From: Legionella shakespearei DSM 23087 | GTDB taxonomy: Bacteria; Pseudomonadota; Gammaproteobacteria; Legionellales; Legionellaceae | Length of the DNA stretch: 64,000 bases | NCBI RefSeq assembly: GCF_000373765.1 | Contig: NZ_KB892435.1 | Coordinates: 8,468-72,467, forward strand | Reading direction: 5' to 3' | Shown: positions 55,244 to 64,000 of the stretch, piece by piece | How positions within the stretch are numbered: position 1 is the stretch's first letter | Layout: every line of letters starts with the position of its first letter | Position numbers and translations under genes: made by a program | The notes under the pieces: model-generated | Databases searched by the model: none | The model's input: only the letters and a program-made list of their open reading frames with translations | What the model was told of the DNA's origin: nothing

Positions 55244-55371
55244 TAATAAAGCATTGACTAATGGAATGAGTGTCCCTAAACGCCAAGACAATAAAGTATT
55301 AATACGTATATTATTTAATCAATTTGACCGCTAGAATATTTATAGCAGACAAAATAGGTTGGAGTAAGTTG

Positions 55372-56142
55372 ATGAAAGAATTAAAGCGTATATTTGTAGT
55401 AGGGCATCCCGCAGCAGGCAAAGCTTATTTTTCAAAACATTTGGCGGAGCGCCTTGGTTATAAATTCGTTGATGCAGATATGGGGCTGGAGCATAGAATA
55501 GGACTGACAATTAGCGAGATACTGGGCCAGGCTGGGCTTAAGCAGTATGAGCATACGCAAGAGGTAATATTTGACTCATTATCAAAACAATCGGGAATTG
55601 TAGTTGGACTTGATTGTCATGTTGGAAATACACTAAAGATACAGGAATATCTAAAGAACGCTTGTGTTGTATTTATTAAAACAACTCTTGAGACACAAAT
55701 CAGACGAGGTGGCAGTCAGCATGTTCCACTTACAAATGTGCATAATATTGAAGATGTACTCAAGACTCTCCATGATGAGCGCAATGAATATTATAATCAA
55801 ATCAGCGACATTGTCTTATCAACTGATGATGGAAATGTTGATAATCATATCGATATAGTCATGGCTTTTCTGAAGCAGAATGGATTCACCTTGGTTGATC
55901 CGGGAGAACTGGCTGATAGAGAACTAGTGTACTTCAAGTACAACACTGATATTCCGGTTCGTATTTCAGAGCAGCAAGCAATTAGTCTTAAGCATTTATC
56001 TAAAGGAAAAACTGCAAAAGAAATAGCTCGCGAGATGAATATATCTTATAGGACTGTTGAGGTCTATATCGCTCAGCTAAAAGAGAAGCTTGAATGTGAT
56101 TCAAGTAAAGATCTGATTAGTATTTACTTATTCAAGCATTAA
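55372..56142 (+). CDS. Degenerate shikimate-kinase domain fused to a LuxR-type HTH regulator
   Basis: 256 aa from the ATG at 55372, with TTGGAG about 7 nt upstream; an in-frame start 16 codons earlier is less likely. Residues ~4-170 align by eye with AroK: RIFVVGHPAAGKAYFSKHLA (P-loop), YKFVDADMGLEHRIG, then KTLHDERNEYYNQISDIVLS. Key residues are lost: the P-loop Thr/Ser is Ala18, the shikimate FR is LK, the GGG loop is GLD and the lid Arg is absent. Residues ~195-256 form a LuxR/GerE HTH (LSKGKTAKEIAREMNISYRT, then VEVYIAQL). It is likely a ligand-sensing regulator, not an enzyme. Confidence 0.85.
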   Translation: MKELKRIFVVGHPAAGKAYFSKHLAERLGYKFVDADMGLEHRIGLTISEILGQAGLKQYEHTQEVIFDSLSKQSGIVVGLDCHVGNTLKIQEYLKNACVVFIKTTLETQIRRGGSQHVPLTNVHNIEDVLKTLHDERNEYYNQISDIVLSTDDGNVDNHIDIVMAFLKQNGFTLVDPGELADRELVYFKYNTDIPVRISEQQAISLKHLSKGKTAKEIAREMNISYRTVEVYIAQLKEKLECDSSKDLISIYLFKH

Positions 56143-56625: not shown

Positions 56626-57747
56626 ATGGCTCAAACCGATTGGCACTATCCTCGTCCTCTATTAGCTGAGAAATATCTTAGTTTATTTGATATAGGATTA
56701 ACTTCTGCACGTGGATTATTTGCCAGGCGAAGAATGGGCAAAACGGAATTTTTAAAAAAGGATTTTATTCCTGTAGCTGAAAATGCTGGCTATTTGGTTG
56801 TATACACTAATCTTTGGGAGTTAAAGATAGATCCCGCTACAGCATTAGTATCAGAGTTTTATAAAATAATTGAACCCAAGGGATTTGCCAAAATTTGGTC
56901 CAATTTGAATACCCCAATCAATATTAAAAAGCTGAAAGCCTCTGGTAAAATACCAGGAATAGGAGAGGGAATGGTAGAAGCAGATCTGCCTGATCCCAAA
57001 AAATTGACAGGGACATTGTTAATGGAGGCGATGAGTTCCTACGATCGCAAAAAGCCTAAAATGGTGTTGATTATAGATGAAGCTCAAGTGCTTGCCTACG
57101 AAGAAAACTCTCATTTTGCTCACGCATTAAGAGCTGCTTTAGATGTAAGAAAAGACAATATTAAAGTTATATTTGCGGGAAGCTCTGAAACTACGCTAAG
57201 ACGAATGTTTGGGGTTGCGTCTGAGCCATTCTATAATTGGGCTCCACTGGAACCATTTGAATTGTTAGGTAAAGATTTTGTTGTAGCTATGGTGGATCGA
57301 GTAAATAAAATCTCAAAATTCCCCTTAACTTTAGATGATGCAATTGATGCTTTTGAAAATCTTAAAAGCACTCCTGAATTTTTCAGAAGATATATTGAAT
57401 ATTACTTAAGTAACCCCGAAGAGGGCAGTAAAACTGCGTTAGAATATACACAAAATAAAGTATTTAGTGACAAGAATTTTAAAAGACAATGGGAAGGGTT
57501 ATTACCCGCGGATAAAGTCATCTTATCTATGATTGCTAATGGGTTTAAAGACTTACATGGGCAGATAGCGATGAAAAAAATAGGAGACACTCTTGGCATT
57601 GAGAATAGTGTGAATAAGAATACTACCCAAAATGCATTGAGACGGCTGTCTAATAAGAATCTAATTACGAAAGTTGAATATGGTATATATCAATTTGAAG
57701 ATGAAACATTCGCTGATTGGGTTATGCATTTAGATGGCGACAGTTGA
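56626..57747 (+). CDS. AAA-type P-loop ATPase with C-terminal winged-helix
   Basis: 373 aa of the archaeal-ATPase/Orc-like group of stand-alone ATP-binding proteins. The P-loop is LFARRRMGKTEFLKKDF (Lys39). Walker B is KMVLIIDEAQVL (Asp151, Glu152). IKVIFAGSSETTL fits sensor 1. The C-terminal part (about 290-373), with IGDTLGIENSVNKNTTQNAL and RRLSNKNLI, looks like a winged helix. The role is unknown; such proteins occur in accessory islands and could act in regulation, DNA maintenance or defence. It lies between the direct repeats with its own promoter. Confidence 0.85.
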   Translation: MAQTDWHYPRPLLAEKYLSLFDIGLTSARGLFARRRMGKTEFLKKDFIPVAENAGYLVVYTNLWELKIDPATALVSEFYKIIEPKGFAKIWSNLNTPINIKKLKASGKIPGIGEGMVEADLPDPKKLTGTLLMEAMSSYDRKKPKMVLIIDEAQVLAYEENSHFAHALRAALDVRKDNIKVIFAGSSETTLRRMFGVASEPFYNWAPLEPFELLGKDFVVAMVDRVNKISKFPLTLDDAIDAFENLKSTPEFFRRYIEYYLSNPEEGSKTALEYTQNKVFSDKNFKRQWEGLLPADKVILSMIANGFKDLHGQIAMKKIGDTLGIENSVNKNTTQNALRRLSNKNLITKVEYGIYQFEDETFADWVMHLDGDS

Positions 57748-57771: not shown

Positions 57772-58041
57772 ATAAAAAATTTTATTCTTTGGACTCACTG
57801 TTCATTAAGTTGTCGTGAAAATGTTTTGTAGCCCGGTCTGCTTGCAGCCGGGAATAGAGACTTGGTCAGAACTTTGGTTGTGTAACGAGCGTCAGTTCCC
57901 GGCTGCAAGCAGACCGGGCTACGAATAGAGTTACCTTAAGTAAGTGCCATTCGGGCCTTGGTAAGTTCCCCTTAGTTACTCTTGTTCCTTTTAGGTTTTA
58001 CATAATTATAATAGCTTATTGATACGTTAATACTACCTAAT
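57772..58041. repeat. Direct repeat DR, copy 2 (~270 bp)
   Basis: Same orientation as copy 1, with a 25-nt gap after the ATPase stop. It contains an R4 hairpin (57827-57924) and ends at the same CTACCTAAT, after which the flanking sequence differs from copy 1. Confidence 0.95.
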
Positions 58042-58045
58042 CAAT

Positions 58046-58252
58046 CTATGAGATCACTCGCTTTGAGCGGGCAGTAAATTCCTCTGGTTTTGCAAACCAG
58101 ACGCCTTTCACTTTATTTTTTTCAAAGGCTAGTTTAAATTCTTCTGAGACTAATATATTACCTAAGTACTCTTTGTCTCTTGCTAATTTATGATGACTCA
58201 TTGCCGGCTTTTGTTTGGGTGTTTTCGACAGCGACCTCGTGTCGCACAGCAA
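58046..58252 (-). pseudogene. Truncated gene, possibly an immunity-type protein
   Basis: 68 codons; KEYLGNILVSEEFKLAFEKN, then KVKGVWFAKPEEF, recalls the C-terminal ...VSE.F...GV.F... motif of Imm11-like immunity proteins; this is from memory and uncertain. The preceding part (MLCDTRSLSKTPKQKP) looks unrelated. It abuts DR copy 2 and is probably a C-terminal fragment rather than an intact gene. The gap 58253-58489 is AT-rich with no gene. Confidence 0.4.
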
Positions 58253-58871: not shown

Positions 58872-59006
58872 AGGCCTGAATGGTACTTACTTAAGGTTTT
58901 TAATTCTATTCGTAGCCCGGTCTGCTTGCAGCCGGGAACTGACGATCGTTACACAACCTAAGTTCTAACTAAGCCTCCATTTCCGGCTGCAAGCAGACCC
59001 GCTACA
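58872..59006. repeat. Inverted partial copy of the direct-repeat core
   Basis: Read on the minus strand it matches the central part of DR: both R4 arms (58913-59006), the spacer AACTTAGGTTGTGTAACGAT and the CCTTAAGTAAGTACCATTC flank. It is more diverged than the two direct copies, so it is probably older. Confidence 0.85.
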
Positions 59007-59111
59007 AAAACATCTTAAGTAAGTCCCCCTAGGTTCTTTTATTTGGACAGTATTCGGGTTTTTCCCATAAATAAATCTCATAGGAGTGGATACTCAATTT
59101 TTTTGGCTCAA

Positions 59112-59366
59112 TTAATAATCCATATTTATATTTCTTTTGCCAGCAATCAAATCATCGGCAATCTCATTCAACCTTTTGAAACATATACTAAACTCTGGTC
59201 CATCCTCCATTTTATTCAAAATTAGTAATATTCTTAAAAATTCCACATCTTGATCAGGAGATCCTTCGATGTAAACTTCATGAGCCCAAGCCGCTATTTT
59301 TCTAATATCCTCCTGAAAACTAACCCTTTCTTTTAATTCTTTGCCAAATCTAGCCCTTGTATACAT
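59112..59366 (-). CDS. 84-aa protein, possible immunity partner of the J-domain protein
   Basis: Begins MYTRARFGKELKERVSFQED. It is mostly helical, with FLRILLILNKMEDGPEF and LNEIADDLIAGKRN, and no known family. Its ATG shares one base with the stop of the 1229-aa gene (TAATG), so translation is coupled. The position directly after a toxin-like C-terminus is the usual place of an immunity gene; the role is inferred from that alone. Confidence 0.65.
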   Translation of the reverse strand: MYTRARFGKELKERVSFQEDIRKIAAWAHEVYIEGSPDQDVEFLRILLILNKMEDGPEFSICFKRLNEIADDLIAGKRNINMDY

Positions 59367-62300
59367 TATTTAAATCCTCTCTTTTCCGTGCCAGTAGGTG
59401 GGTAATGCTGAGCACGTAGATTTTGTCCATCAATCGTTTTAGGATGAACTCTATTCACATTACCTTGATGATCATAAGATTCGGCCCAAGTGCGTACTTG
59501 TCCTGTTTTAGTATTGTGTTCAGTTACGTAGGCATTTCCTCTTGTAGGTCCAGGTGTTCTCGAGGGACGTTCTATATCATAATAGCGAATTCTTCCATCA
59601 GCAAGATGTTCAGTCTTAACAGCAGTGAGTTGAGCGCTTTGTAGAATTCTTAGTTTATGATTCATGGCTGCTTGAGCATTAACATTATTAAAGGCACTTC
59701 CACCAATACGGCTCCCTCCTAAAGGAGCATTTCCTTGCTTTGTATTAATTTTTGGTTGAACATTAACACCACCATAGATGAAAAATGAGTAGCGAGATCG
59801 ACTCGCCTGTTCTGCTTGAGGCACTTCATGACGTACGCTGGCAGGTACCCAAAAGCATTGTCCTTTTAAATCGACTTCTTGTGCCTGAGTTCCTAGTTTA
59901 ACCGTCACAAATCCAGCCTCTAAAGCTGCTTTTGGGGTTCTACAATCTTGCAAATAGCGCCGTGATCTGGCTACAGCGACGCGTTGCGCTGCAACCTGTC
60001 CTGATTCCTCCAAAGCGTGTTCAATATCTTTAATATTAGATTCAATGAACTGCATTCGAATGTCTTGCGCGATGTTTTTATGACCGTAGCGTCGACCATA
60101 CTCAGTCGACTTTACCTTATCTCTTAAATCGTCAAATTGCTCAGTTACTTGTTGGCGGCAGGTTTCATACAGACGATGATATTTTTTATAACTTTCTGTA
60201 TTTGGAGGTGATGTTGTATGGGAATCTGCAATGATATAATCAATTGCTTCGAGTTCTTCACGATTGGATTGGCGTATGCTGTTTAAATAACGCACTAACA
60301 CTGTTATTTTACTCAGTTCCTTTAAGCGACCAAATTCGGGTAGATATTGCGCAAACTCATCATAATATTCGGTGAATTCATGCGCAAAAATAAATTCGGG
60401 CGAGTAACGATGTGATAACCCTGTTTGAGCGGCCATCTCTTTCGTAATTCTATAGAGTAAAGGCATTGATTCGGTTGTTGGTGGCACTTTTCCATCCACG
60501 TCTCGGGAATGAATGTACAATTCAATCAGGGTTTCACGGTAATCGATGGGGGTATGCTCACGGATCACCTTATTATTTTCCCAATACAGCAGTTGGACTT
60601 TATTGTAGATAAATATCATGGCATGGGTATTAATCTGACGTCTGCCTTCTTTCAGCTCTTCGAATTGCTCTGCTGTAAGAACATAAATTGGCCAGCCCTC
60701 ATCTTCATTACCAACGTCTTTCAGTTCTCCATTAAGGTCTCGCTCCATACGGTGTTTCTTAACCACCATTTTCAAATTGCCCAGACGAATACGAGTAATG
60801 TCCTTGGGCTCAACCTGTCCGTCTGATAAAGATAAATTGATTTCTTCCGCTTCAATCCAGAATCGATGTAATGCACCACTATGTTGGCTTTGCTGATACG
60901 CTTCAATTATTTGGCGTAAGTATTTGGGGACATGCGAGAGCATGTTCGCCACCGGACGTTGGTCAAAAGGATACTGGCCGCATACTTCCTGATTTGTAGT
61001 CATAAATTTTAACATGTAATCAGTCAATAACATGGTGTTTAATAATTCACTTTCAGCAAGTGAGGAGGGGGCAAATCGCATGGCGTTAAAGGGATGGTAC
61101 GGTTTGAGTGGGTCAACAGGGTCTAAGCTAAAAACAGCGCCACCGATATTCTTTTCCAAAAGTTCTTCTAAATCAAATTGGCTAAATACTTTTTCATATA
61201 CAGGGCGTCCTTCAGTCCATGGCGTCATATAGAAGTCGATTTTACCCGTTTTATGATTAATTTCAGCACCATTGATGGTTCTGTATTGCGTGCTACGCCC
61301 TGTCTGATAGGGCAGCATACGTGTGGGTTTTATCCAACCCTCTGCATCTCTATCGACCATAATCCAGGGGGAGTTTAAACGTTCTTCTACATCAAGAAAT
61401 GTCCAGCTATTCTCAAACAATAATTCATCCATTAAATCAATGCGAAATTGTTGTTCTAAATTCGAGTTATATTCTTCCTGATACCAGTTTTTTAAACAGG
61501 CTTCATACGCTTGATAAAGAATCTCAGTTGGGGCATGGTGTATGGCTTGAGGCGTTTCAGAGAGGTTTTTATTGTGTTGATAGATTTTAATTAGTGTGTG
61601 AAGGACTTGCCGCATTAAATGTAAACCCTTGCGCTCTTCTCTTAAAAACACAATATTTGACTGTGGCAATTCAAAAAATGGAAACATGTCCGCCAGGAGA
61701 TGAGTTCGCTTTTTTAGAGATAAAATGACTTCATTCAATGTGTCGTCTTGATACTTAAATGATGCCAGGTAACGCAGTACGTGGGTGATAGCATACATTT
61801 CTATATCTGGAGTGTCATGCTGTGCAATACCTATGGCTGTTAAATACATTTTCAATGCAAGTTGCTCGTCAGCCATTTGCAGCGTAGGATTATCTTCCAA
61901 CCGAGCCGCATTCTGGAATTTTAAGCCAATTTGTAAAAAATGGTTCATTAGAACGGCGCGGCTACTCTGATTCATCAAAAAGGATACCCAATCCAACGAT
62001 TGAAACGCATCTTCTCTGTAAACCTCTGCGGTTTGTTTACACTGTGACATTCGTTGTGAGGTTTTTTCATATTGGTACAATGATTTTACATGGCGAATAA
62101 GTTGGGTGAGATTCTTGTTCGTTCCATTCATGCTTAAACGTTCTTTTAACGTCATCAAGAGGTCTTTTGCATCCTGCATACCATCGTAAGATTTTAATTC
62201 ATCTAAATTGTGTTGTTCTTGCCAATAAAGATGTAATGCTTGTGCGTAAAGGGTGCGAAATAAGGGATCATAAAATAAAGGAAGGGTATGTGATAATGTC

Positions 62301-63055
62301 GCTGGATCAGTCGTTTTTGCAAAATTCGTTATTTTATTCACGGAATAAATCAATGTACTTATAGGGGCTTTTTGGCATGCAATCAGGGTGAGTTCGAAAA
62401 AGCCTTCATATAACTCCAGCTCAGCCCCAAGCTTCTTGTGCTGTTTGATTTTTTTTATCTCATCGGCTAAATAGGAGCTTAATTTGGTGAGTCGAGAACC
62501 GAAATAATCACCTGATAAAAATTCCATGAGTTGCTTAATGGCTAATCCGGGAGTTAAGGGGCGGGATTCTATAGTACTAACGGGTTGGTTTCCCTGCTCT
62601 GTTTTTTTACGGATCAACGCAAACACATCGTGGATCGTCTGAGCTGGCGAACCGTTTTCTGAGGGTGTAAAGGAATATTTCCCGGATTGAAATTCTGTAG
62701 CTTGCTTTTCCCAAAGAGTTAATGGGGTTTGCCTATAGCGTGCATTCAGAGATTCATGTTGCTTTCTGAACTGGTACGAATAAGGTAATGCATTGCCTGC
62801 TTTAATTCGCTCGTAAATAACGAGTTCACTCTCATCGTCTACATCTGCTTCCTGAAATAGACGCCACTTTTCATCATAATTTCGCCGTTCATTCGGGTCT
62901 GAAAGAGTTTGATACGCTTCGTTCAATAACCCCATCCGTTCCGAACTACCACCCCTGTCGGGGTGTTCGATTAATGATAGGGTTCGATATGCTTTTTTAA
63001 TTTCTTGTGCTGAAGCATCGTGTGAGAGGCCCAATAACAGATACAAATTGTTCAT
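59366..63055 (-). CDS. Large J-domain protein with polymorphic-toxin-like C-terminus
   Basis: 1229 aa. Residues 1-66 form a J-domain: LYLLLGLSHDASAQEIKKAY, the HPD motif at 31-33 in IEHPDRGG, then LNEAYQTLSDPNERRNYD. No zinc finger follows. The middle ~1000 residues are unrecognised and helical. The last ~95 residues change character: DGRIRYYDIERPSRTPGPTR, then QVRTWAESYDHQGNVNRVHP, resembling C-terminal tips of Rhs/CDI-type polymorphic toxins. No signal peptide; a T4SS route is conceivable for this genus. It forms an operon with the ankyrin-like gene upstream and the 84-aa gene downstream. Confidence 0.8.
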   Translation of the reverse strand: MNNLYLLLGLSHDASAQEIKKAYRTLSLIEHPDRGGSSERMGLLNEAYQTLSDPNERRNYDEKWRLFQEADVDDESELVIYERIKAGNALPYSYQFRKQHESLNARYRQTPLTLWEKQATEFQSGKYSFTPSENGSPAQTIHDVFALIRKKTEQGNQPVSTIESRPLTPGLAIKQLMEFLSGDYFGSRLTKLSSYLADEIKKIKQHKKLGAELELYEGFFELTLIACQKAPISTLIYSVNKITNFAKTTDPATLSHTLPLFYDPLFRTLYAQALHLYWQEQHNLDELKSYDGMQDAKDLLMTLKERLSMNGTNKNLTQLIRHVKSLYQYEKTSQRMSQCKQTAEVYREDAFQSLDWVSFLMNQSSRAVLMNHFLQIGLKFQNAARLEDNPTLQMADEQLALKMYLTAIGIAQHDTPDIEMYAITHVLRYLASFKYQDDTLNEVILSLKKRTHLLADMFPFFELPQSNIVFLREERKGLHLMRQVLHTLIKIYQHNKNLSETPQAIHHAPTEILYQAYEACLKNWYQEEYNSNLEQQFRIDLMDELLFENSWTFLDVEERLNSPWIMVDRDAEGWIKPTRMLPYQTGRSTQYRTINGAEINHKTGKIDFYMTPWTEGRPVYEKVFSQFDLEELLEKNIGGAVFSLDPVDPLKPYHPFNAMRFAPSSLAESELLNTMLLTDYMLKFMTTNQEVCGQYPFDQRPVANMLSHVPKYLRQIIEAYQQSQHSGALHRFWIEAEEINLSLSDGQVEPKDITRIRLGNLKMVVKKHRMERDLNGELKDVGNEDEGWPIYVLTAEQFEELKEGRRQINTHAMIFIYNKVQLLYWENNKVIREHTPIDYRETLIELYIHSRDVDGKVPPTTESMPLLYRITKEMAAQTGLSHRYSPEFIFAHEFTEYYDEFAQYLPEFGRLKELSKITVLVRYLNSIRQSNREELEAIDYIIADSHTTSPPNTESYKKYHRLYETCRQQVTEQFDDLRDKVKSTEYGRRYGHKNIAQDIRMQFIESNIKDIEHALEESGQVAAQRVAVARSRRYLQDCRTPKAALEAGFVTVKLGTQAQEVDLKGQCFWVPASVRHEVPQAEQASRSRYSFFIYGGVNVQPKINTKQGNAPLGGSRIGGSAFNNVNAQAAMNHKLRILQSAQLTAVKTEHLADGRIRYYDIERPSRTPGPTRGNAYVTEHNTKTGQVRTWAESYDHQGNVNRVHPKTIDGQNLRAQHYPPTGTEKRGFK

Positions 63056-63075: not shown

Positions 63076-64000
63076 TTACAAGCTAAGGGATGAATTGCTA
63101 AGTTCCATACTTTTAGCACGCCAATATTCGGCTTTTTCCTCATTATGAAAAAATGATTTATACATTTGACTAAGTTCTAGTTTTTTGGCAGAACTCACTC
63201 TTTGAGCAAGGCGCTCCAGGGGGATTAATGCGTCTTCCTGGCCAAGCTGTGCCGCTTTTAAATAGGAATCAAATGCGGTATTTAAATCGCATGAGTCTGG
63301 ATTAATTTGATGGCGTTGTCCTAAATCAACCGCCGCCACCTTATCCTTCAACTCCACTGCCTCTGAAAGGAATGTGAGAATTTCTTGAGTGCTGGAGGTT
63401 GGCTCATAGGCTTGGGCAACTTTCACGCATACGCTTTCTGTATTGGCTGCACTCATAAGCGTTGCTTGTTGCTCAGGGGATGGGCTTTCATCACGTGCGT
63501 TATTAGCCTTTTCTATAAAACGATGAGCCAGTTGCTTTTGTTTGTATTTAAACCAAGATTCTTCGATGTATTTAATAAAAGTGTCATCTGATGCGGCAAT
63601 AAACCACCAGTTTTTCCTGGCACAATCAATCAGACTAATATCATTAAATAGACCACCATTAATAGAGCAATCCGCCTGCATTTCTTCTATAAAATACTGA
63701 ACAACGTCAAGATGTCGGTAAGCTGTTGCGACCATCAGCGCGTTATAAACTGATGTAAAAATCGCAAAACTTCCTAAAATAGCATGACTTACTCGTGTAT
63801 TTATCACGTCTGCGCTGACTGTATATTTTTTAATTTCAGACAGATTTCCTGCTTTGGCTAACTGGCATAACAAGTGGGCTGTAATTGGAGGCCTAGGTAC
63901 ATCGGGTGCTGCATTGGCATTGGCTGATTCGCTTTGTTTCATTGTTTCGGAAGGTTCTTCTGGCTCCGTAAGTGATGAATCTATTGTTTCATCAGTCAGA
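63076..64000 (-). CDS. Ankyrin-like protein, partial (5' end outside the window)
   Basis: The frame is open to the window edge (LTDETIDSSLTEPEEPSETM precedes the internal ATG at 63942), so the start lies outside. The visible 300 residues have an acidic N-terminal part. Ankyrin-like repeats follow (HLLCQLAKAGNLSEIKKYTV and YNALMVATAYRHLDVVQYFI), then a Sel1/TPR-like C-terminal half (AFDSYLKAAQLGQEDALIPL). It ends 20 nt before the J-domain gene. Ankyrin proteins are common among Legionella effectors. Confidence 0.8.
   Translation of the reverse strand, partial: LTDETIDSSLTEPEEPSETMKQSESANANAAPDVPRPPITAHLLCQLAKAGNLSEIKKYTVSADVINTRVSHAILGSFAIFTSVYNALMVATAYRHLDVVQYFIEEMQADCSINGGLFNDISLIDCARKNWWFIAASDDTFIKYIEESWFKYKQKQLAHRFIEKANNARDESPSPEQQATLMSAANTESVCVKVAQAYEPTSSTQEILTFLSEAVELKDKVAAVDLGQRHQINPDSCDLNTAFDSYLKAAQLGQEDALIPLERLAQRVSSAKKLELSQMYKSFFHNEEKAEYWRAKSMELSNSSLSL

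What the first reader, a model, noticed from the sequence alone, without database searches (positions are those of the whole stretch)
59112..63055. J-domain polymorphic toxin with an overlapping candidate immunity gene
The 1229-aa protein starts with a J-domain (HPD intact) and ends in a ~95-residue segment that looks like a polymorphic-toxin tip. The next gene is 84 codons and overlaps by one base. A J-domain as the N-terminal, chaperone-recruiting or delivery part of a toxin would be an unusual trafficking design, perhaps keeping a large protein unfolded for secretion.
Basis: partly seen in the sequence, partly recalled or inferred. Interest (0 to 1): 0.85.

Follow-up and report, generated by a model that had tools for sequence, protein, structure and literature searches.

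The report
J-domain carrier for swappable toxins
This gene encodes a large protein that starts with a chaperone-recruiting J-domain and ends in an exchangeable toxin-like tip, followed by what looks like its matching protective gene; it belongs to a modular family found in Legionella-like and other host-associated bacteria and may show a new way of delivering toxins.

Summary
The 1229-aa ORF has an intact J-domain (residues 3-61, HPD at 31-33), a body conserved to about residue 1121 and a 108-residue tip; an 84-aa gene overlaps its stop (TAATG). Among 116 family members, 92 reach the tip boundary, and their ends fall into 19 clusters, including AHH, Ntox8, Ntox17, WHH and Tox-URI2. A carrier tree needs at least 38 tip changes. 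The downstream gene changes with the tip: five families, no cross-match. The window's tip also occurs on Rhs, CdiA-type and ankyrin proteins. A relative has an AHH tip, Imm11, then a cassette of the window's tip and immunity; the window keeps an Imm11 remnant. This is a polymorphic toxin architecture with an unusual carrier.

Two further findings: a Sel1/ankyrin gene with a characteristic C-terminal domain lies directly upstream of the carrier in 14 of 16 other loci examined and in the window, and in one relative the carrier follows an icmB-like gene inside a dot/icm cluster. IcmJ/DotN occurs in 22 of 23 carrier-bearing genomes, a type VI sheath gene in 2 of 23. Toxicity, Hsp70 recruitment and type IVB export are inferred, not shown.

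The parts
59366..63055 (-). J-domain polymorphic-toxin carrier with its tip, 1229 aa
   Evidence: ORF; 117 proteins match residues 63-1120, own protein included
62873..63049 (-). J-domain (residues 3-61); HPD at residues 31-33 (62957-62965)
   Evidence: Pfam PF00226 E 9.3e-17; HPD in 82 of the 89 rows that have letters there, 93 rows aligned; fold match
61373..62551 (-). all-helical, repeat-like region of the carrier (residues 169-561), no known family found
   Evidence: AlphaFold2 model, mean pLDDT 88, pTM 0.83; weak matches only; not folded alone
60341..61303 (-). conserved alpha/beta core of the carrier (residues 585-905), no known family found
   Evidence: (many of the invariant columns)
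59702..59863 (-). beta module just before the tip (about residues 1065-1118, CFWVPASVRH...YGGV); its sequence is repeated in the orphan cassette of a relative
59369..59692 (-). exchangeable toxin-like tip (residues 1122-1229), one helix plus antiparallel beta strands, conserved R/H/K/E/T residues
   Evidence: same tip on other carriers; model pLDDT 90; no confident fold match
59112..59366 (-). proposed cognate immunity protein, 84 aa, overlaps the carrier stop by one base
   Evidence: the same family follows this tip type in other loci, including an Rhs locus on a Protochlamydia plasmid
63076..63999 (-). upstream partner gene (346 aa in all, 20 bp before the carrier; continues past the window end), weak ankyrin-like stretch
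   Evidence: Ank_2 E 0.0038, below cut-off
63079..63381 (-). C-terminal Sel1-like domain of the partner, conserved in the gene directly upstream of other carriers
59038..59076 (-). remnant of the start of an Imm11-type immunity gene (partner of AHH tips)
   Evidence: tblastn 92% over 13 residues, E 1.4e-4 in a small search
58076..58234 (-). remnant of the end of an Imm11-type immunity gene
   Evidence: E 1e-14 to 2e-11 in a small search; Pfam Imm11 E 0.018, below its cut-off

Best explanation
This is a polymorphic toxin-immunity system whose carrier is a J-domain protein. The 84-aa protein protects the producer by binding the 108-residue tip (inferred). The body and J-domain stay fixed while tip-plus-immunity cassettes are exchanged next to the beta module before the tip (the exchange is shown by comparison; recombination is the inferred route). 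The J-domain most likely recruits an Hsp70, the producer's DnaK or the recipient's, to hold or pull the large protein in a transport-competent state (inferred). The upstream Sel1/ankyrin protein, with its characteristic C-terminal domain, probably acts as scaffold or adaptor for the carrier (inferred). The most likely exporter is the Dot/Icm type IVB system and the main targets are rival bacteria sharing the same protist host or biofilm (inferred, about 0.45). Sub-confidence: polymorphic toxin architecture 0.95; this tip is a toxin neutralised by the 84-aa protein 0.85; partner works with the carrier 0.75; J-domain engages an Hsp70 0.8; T4BSS export 0.5.
For: Body conserved, tip not; 19 end clusters among the 92 of 116 family members (window included) that reach the boundary with more than 60 aa after it (one singleton is a 62-aa stub). 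Toxin families at the ends: AHH in all 32 members of the largest cluster (precomputed Pfam; placed at 1250-1340 of P0002), Ntox17, Ntox8, WHH/Colicin-DNase on one protein, Tox-URI2. At least 38 tip changes on the carrier tree. Near-identical bodies with unrelated tips. Co-varying downstream families: Imm11 for AHH and DUF2750 for Ntox8, own families for Ntox17, the L035 tip and the window tip. Orphan cassettes in L038, L020 and L029. Same tip on Rhs, TPS/haemagglutinin and ankyrin proteins. Upstream partner: 14 of 16 loci, plus the window; in 143 genomes the 12 strongest matches to its C-terminal domain (E <= 1.7e-23) all lie on carrier contigs, the best on another contig 5.3e-10. Carrier 158 bp after an icmB-like gene behind icmE-, icmG- and icmJ-like genes in L035, an order matched from icmG to icmB in the window's own genome. 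IcmJ in 22 of 23 carrier genomes, T6SS VipA in 2 of 23. HPD kept in 82 of 89.
Against: No experiment. The tip has no Pfam match, no sequence match in the PDB and no confident fold match, so its activity is unknown. Only one locus links the carrier to dot/icm genes; there IcmJ alone passes its curated cut-off, IcmE and IcmG lie below theirs, and IcmB is named from position and similarity only. IcmJ co-occurrence is nearly uninformative inside the window's family, where all 18 genomes have it; outside it is 4 of 5, G195 carries the family without a detected IcmJ, and 2 of those 5 do have T6SS VipA. No base rate for IcmJ in the class was measured. No translocation signal was tested. Rows come also from Wolbachia and Jidaibacter, which lack a T4BSS (recalled). 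Divergent relatives hold a kinase or an ADP-ribosyltransferase-like domain, which fits host targets. 7 of 89 rows have lost strict HPD.
Confidence: 0.75

Rival explanations
1. Host-directed effector family: the carrier delivers payloads into the protist or animal host, and the immunity genes only protect the producer from nuclease payloads before export.
For: Sel1 and ankyrin partners and intracellular lifestyle; divergent J-carriers hold a protein kinase domain (L071, residues 2243-2314 of 2467, E 1.4e-8) or an ADP-ribosyltransferase-like domain (L073, E 4.7e-5, frame cut by the contig end); Dot/Icm link; P0018 has an internal OTU protease domain.
Against: Arrays of orphan tips and immunity genes, tips shared with Rhs and CdiA-type carriers and co-varying immunity genes are the signature of conflict between bacteria. 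Both uses may coexist in the wider family.
Confidence: 0.25
2. Internal suicide or anti-phage system: the toxin is never exported; the J-domain/Hsp70 pair senses proteotoxic stress or phage and releases the toxin from the immunity protein.
For: No N-terminal signal sequence (the J-domain starts at residue 3); chaperone-gated conflict systems are described, and in some GAP1-N2 systems with HSP70 a DnaJ domain is fused to an FNIII-repeat protein (PMC7159879, passages seen).
Against: No PADLOC match for carrier or partner at E 0.01, and only a weak one (E 0.0033) for the 84-aa protein; no Hsp70 or GTPase gene was noticed beside the window's carrier; arrays of orphan cassettes fit competition better.
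Confidence: 0.12
3. Ordinary co-chaperone with a fast-evolving tail and an unrelated small gene downstream.
For: J-domain present; no Pfam hit for the window's tip or the 84-aa protein.
Against: Ends match curated toxin families in relatives, the downstream gene changes with the tip, and the tip occurs on unrelated toxin carriers with the same downstream family.
Confidence: 0.02

Closest known systems
Polymorphic toxin systems (CdiA, Rhs and others; Zhang et al. 2012, PMC3482391, passages seen)
   Same: conserved carrier, variable C-terminal toxin, immunity gene next door, orphan cassettes; Tox-AHH with Imm11 (DUF1629) and with Imm43 is listed there
   Different: no known trafficking domain found in the window protein; the N-terminus is a J-domain; 'dnaj' and 'j-domain' occur 0 times in the held text of that paper (first 300,000 of 357,715 characters)
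Polymorphic toxin systems of the Bodo saltans endosymbiont (PMC8163844, section 19 read)
   Same: intracellular bacterium; AHH end followed by a protein matching Imm43 and DUF1629; orphan modules repeating part of the carrier
   Different: [quoted passage not shown] 'dnaj' and 'j-domain' 0 times in the main text; T6SS is suggested there
Kib type IVB killing system of Pseudomonas putida IsoF (PMC9519443, abstract and passages seen)
   Same: a T4BSS delivering an antibacterial effector with immunity
   Different: passages describe one effector-immunity pair; 'sel1' and 'ankyrin' occur 0 times in the main text; no homology test made
GAP1-N2 GTPase conflict systems with HSP70 (PMC7159879, passage seen)
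   Same: a DnaJ domain on a large protein of a biological conflict system
   Different: there fused to FNIII repeats beside GTPase and HSP70 genes; no tip/immunity cassettes in the passage seen
J-domain proteins of class C, and J-domain effectors such as HopI1 (recalled)
   Same: J-domain with HPD; no DnaJ zinc finger or C-terminal domains found by Pfam
   Different: huge body of unknown kind and exchangeable tip

Membership tests
Polymorphic toxin system | long conserved carrier with exchangeable C-terminal toxin domain | tested here: met
Polymorphic toxin system | immunity gene immediately downstream that changes with the tip | tested here: met
   window pair overlaps by one base
Polymorphic toxin system | tip shared with other polymorphic toxin carriers | tested here: met
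Polymorphic toxin system | orphan tip/immunity cassettes next to the carrier | tested here: met
   in relatives L038, L020, L029; in the window only an Imm11 remnant
Polymorphic toxin system | the tip is toxic and neutralised by the next gene's product | not testable with these tools
   no bench work
J-domain protein | J-domain fold with HPD | tested here: met
J-domain protein | stimulates an Hsp70 | not testable with these tools
   HPD kept in 82 of 89 rows is indirect
CDI (CdiA/CdiB) | TPS secretion domain at the N-terminus of the toxin | tested here: not met
   Pfam finds only DnaJ above cut-off in the window protein; TPS is found on P0177, which has the same tip
T6SS effector | genome encodes a T6SS sheath (VipA) | tested here: not met
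   window genome 0 matches; 2 of 23 carrier genomes have it
Dot/Icm (T4BSS) substrate | genome encodes Dot/Icm | tested here: met
   IcmJ E 1.1e-118 with icmG-to-icmB-like neighbours; IcmJ in 22 of 23 carrier genomes
Dot/Icm (T4BSS) substrate | Dot/Icm-dependent translocation and signal | not tested
   only gene linkage in L035
Anti-phage defence system | matches a described defence family | tested here: inconclusive
   PADLOC: no match for carrier or partner, a weak one for the 84-aa protein

The most novel reading that the evidence does not exclude
A dedicated delivery class for polymorphic toxins in Dot/Icm bacteria: the toxin carries its own co-chaperone. The J-domain recruits Hsp70 as an export or import ratchet, the Sel1/ankyrin partner loads it on the type IVB system, and the same chassis carries immunity-protected nuclease tips against rival bacteria or, in divergent members, kinase and ADP-ribosyltransferase-like payloads suited to eukaryotic hosts. 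Dot/Icm in Legionella relatives would then also be an antibacterial weapon.
Probability: 0.3. Interest if true: 0.93.

Novelty: new variant of a known kind. Interest (0 to 1): 0.8.

Why it matters
Polymorphic toxins are classed by how they travel. A J-domain chassis with a Sel1/ankyrin partner was not seen in the listings of seven searches (one search showed 10 of 202 papers) or in the passages read. It would give host-associated bacteria such as relatives of Legionella, Rickettsiella and Jidaibacter a weapon class of their own. It makes two open questions testable: whether a toxin can bring its own Hsp70 recruiter to cross membranes, and whether type IVB systems of intracellular bacteria also fight other bacteria.

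Tried and rejected

Plasmid search with the carrier: no match. With the tip: 4 records.

Own genome: one full carrier and one immunity gene; the other four matches cover only the J-domain.

First clustering of tips chained 74 of 92 into one group through the shared linker; it was replaced by clustering the last 92 residues.

Samples: carrier in 7 of 57 near relatives and in 18 of 143 genomes of the order, both counts including own genome and some fragments or divergent members; L035-type carriers in 7 of 369 genomes of the class; carrier in 2 of 398 of the phylum; tip in 2 of 369 of the class.

OTU first looked like a tip type; one search places it inside the body of P0018 (154-282), so it is not counted as one. 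WHH and Colicin-DNase are the same stretch of P0096. Three tip clusters scanned (P0005, P0009, P0019) have no Pfam toxin name.

Rows dropped before counts: P0117 was left out of the 116; 24 of 116 without boundary or with 60 aa or less after it; rows under 1150 aa left out of the 93-row alignment; 4 of 93 rows without letters at HPD. For upstream genes, 15 of the 19 loci and L041 were read; L019, L033, L034 and L036 were not. Loci and G genomes overlap (equal contig lengths, e.g. L025 and G005), so they are not independent. The A5 model held rows from most of the genomes it later matched; G064 and G059 were not among them. At E <= 1e-6 A5 matched 60 of 143 genomes, mostly weak matches of general Sel1 type, and not all candidates were scored in each genome.
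Full report
What is there. The window lies in contig C55 of a 3.5 Mb genome. It is put in one genus with G005, whose contig C1 has the same length (101,092 bases) as the Legionella worsleiensis contig. The minus-strand ORF 63055-59366 encodes 1229 aa; the next ORF, 59366-59112, encodes 84 aa and shares one base with its stop. Pfam finds one domain above cut-off, DnaJ at residues 3-61. The HPD motif is intact, and 82 of the 89 aligned rows with letters there keep it (3 HTD, 3 HSD, 1 TTD; 93 rows). The AlphaFold2 model of residues 1-1120 is confident (mean pLDDT 88, pTM 0.83): J-domain, a helical repeat-like stretch, an alpha/beta core, long helices, and a small beta module before the tip. Only the J-domain has a clear match in the PDB.

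Carrier and tips. A search with residues 63-1120 found 117 proteins, the window's own included, with source names from Legionella and other Legionellales, Rickettsiella, Wolbachia, Jidaibacter and others. Identity to the window is high through much of the body and falls after about residue 1121. Of 116 family members (window included, P0117 left out), 92 reach the boundary motif with more than 60 aa after it; their last 92 residues fall into 19 clusters at phmmer E 1e-4. The largest cluster has 32 members, and all 32 carry PF14412 in the precomputed Pfam column; a scan of one names it AHH and places it at the end. Other ends: Ntox17 (P0060), Ntox8 (P0072), WHH overlapping Colicin-DNase (P0096) and Tox-URI2 (P0104). 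Several clusters, among them those of P0005, P0009, P0019 and the window, have no Pfam name. On a FastTree tree of 88 carriers the tip type changes at least 38 times (18 types, least possible 17, shuffled mean 54, as low in 0 of 200): tips are clustered but swap often. P0171 and P0078, both named for the Rickettsiella endosymbiont of Dermanyssus gallinae, are 85-95% identical in each of the first twelve 100-column blocks and 28% in the last.

Partner genes change with the tip. In loci with a readable end, AHH tips are followed within 10-26 bp by Imm11 proteins (4 of 4 scanned; also L074 by phmmer, and L038 by tblastn; L041 seen in sequence only). Ntox8 is followed by DUF2750, Ntox17 in L028 and L072 by a third family (mutual E 1.6e-7), the L035 tip by a fourth (two copies), and the window's tip by a fifth. 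No pair from different families scored below E 1e-3 in that comparison of 19 proteins. The window's tip type also ends proteins with Rhs repeats, TPS/haemagglutinin domains or ankyrin repeats. On a Protochlamydia plasmid (annotated RHS repeat protein) and in Cupriavidus the frame behind it is a distant member of the same immunity family (E 6.9e-6 and 4.5e-6 in a small set).

Signs of swapping. In G015 (L038, a 3 kb contig) the carrier ends in AHH followed by Imm11; then comes a cassette that repeats the last part of the carrier and continues into the window's tip type and its immunity. In L020 an AHH tip, out of the carrier's frame, and Imm11 are followed by pieces of the window's tip type at four places and four of its immunity genes. 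The window shows the reverse state: its tip and immunity, and directly behind them two remnants of an Imm11 gene (59076-59038 and 58234-58076). A copy of the window's palindromic repeat lies between the remnants, with an inverted mate beyond the second. I read this as an AHH/Imm11 pair replaced by the present one (inference).

An upstream partner. The gene 20 bp upstream (346 aa, reaching past the window end) has a weak ankyrin-like stretch and a C-terminal Sel1-like domain. A gene with that C-terminal domain lies 1-44 bp upstream of the carrier in 14 of 16 loci read (15 of the 19 loci, and L041), plus the window; the exceptions are L022, which has a copy downstream, and L035. The rest of the partner varies: many Sel1 repeats, ankyrin plus Sel1, or nothing recognised. 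A profile of the C-terminal domain searched in 143 genomes of the order gave 12 matches at E <= 1.7e-23, all on carrier contigs; the best match on any other contig is 5.3e-10, and 60 genomes have some match at 1e-6. Most of the 11 genomes with strong matches contributed rows to the profile, so what this shows is specificity; two (G064, G059) did not.

Delivery. The J-domain begins at residue 3, so no Sec signal precedes it. The window's genome has no T6SS VipA match and has IcmJ/DotN. In L035, a MAG named Legionellales bacterium, the carrier starts 158 bp after a 1010-aa ORF that I name IcmB-like from its place and its 47% identity to the ORF beside icmJ in the window's genome. Before it lie IcmJ (above cut-off) and IcmG- and IcmE-like genes (E 9.4e-36 and 2e-72, below their cut-offs). 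The order from icmG to icmB is the same in the window's own genome. IcmJ occurs in 22 of 23 carrier genomes and VipA in 2 of 23. Within the window's family (18 of 18) this says little; outside, IcmJ is in 4 of 5 and VipA in 2 of 5, and G195 has neither. Type IVB killing of bacteria is known in Pseudomonas putida (PMC9519443, abstract and passages). I therefore favour T4BSS export with about even odds, not as a result.

Wider family. Divergent J-carriers exist: L072 ends in Ntox17, L071 contains a C-terminal kinase domain, and L073 an ADP-ribosyltransferase-like domain near the contig end. The chassis may serve against both bacteria and hosts.

Literature. Seven searches showed no paper describing a J-domain polymorphic toxin carrier; one search listed 10 of 202 papers, most listed papers were seen as listings only, and the library holds no preprints and few subscription papers. 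Zhang et al. 2012 (passages) lists AHH with Imm11 and Imm43 but holds no 'dnaj' or 'j-domain' in the text held. The Bodo saltans endosymbiont paper (section 19 read) shows the same cassette layout with carriers of unknown kind. One eLife paper (passage) has DnaJ domains in other, GTPase-centred conflict systems.

Verdict. Toxicity, Hsp70 use and the export route remain to be shown.

Noticed in passing
window 55324-56142 (+): 272-aa ORF with a shikimate-kinase domain followed by a LuxR-type HTH (Pfam SKI E 3.8e-21, GerE E 3e-12): a kinase-regulator fusion that looks unusual.
   Followed up: no
window, 14 places, e.g. 57828, 57905, 58912: Palindromic repeat GCAAGCAGACCGGGCTAC and variants, 14 matches with up to 2 mismatches against 0 expected; a 116-nt inverted pair lies at 57818-57933 and 58901-59016, near the Imm11 remnants.
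   Followed up: partly
window 52482-51912 (-): Two overlapping small ORFs that look like a RelB/ParE-type toxin-antitoxin pair (by eye, not tested).
   Followed up: no
window 56626-57747 (+): 373-aa ATPase resembling ATPase_2 / AAA_14 (below cut-offs).
   Followed up: no
L037:10582-14364 (+), beyond the window end: 1260-aa ORF with a kinase-like start and a possible NUDIX-like middle (by eye), near the toxin locus; could be an effector.
   Followed up: no
L071:9329-1926 (-) and L073:4606-1 (-): Very large J-domain proteins with a kinase domain or an ADP-ribosyltransferase-like domain on the C-terminal side.
   Followed up: partly
P0018 residues 154-282: An OTU-like cysteine protease domain is inserted inside a J-domain carrier.
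   Followed up: no
P0090 from residue 1002, P0112 from residue 1287: Residue strings that look like translated sequencing adapters, so these database rows may carry assembly artefacts (by eye, recalled pattern; positions).
   Followed up: no
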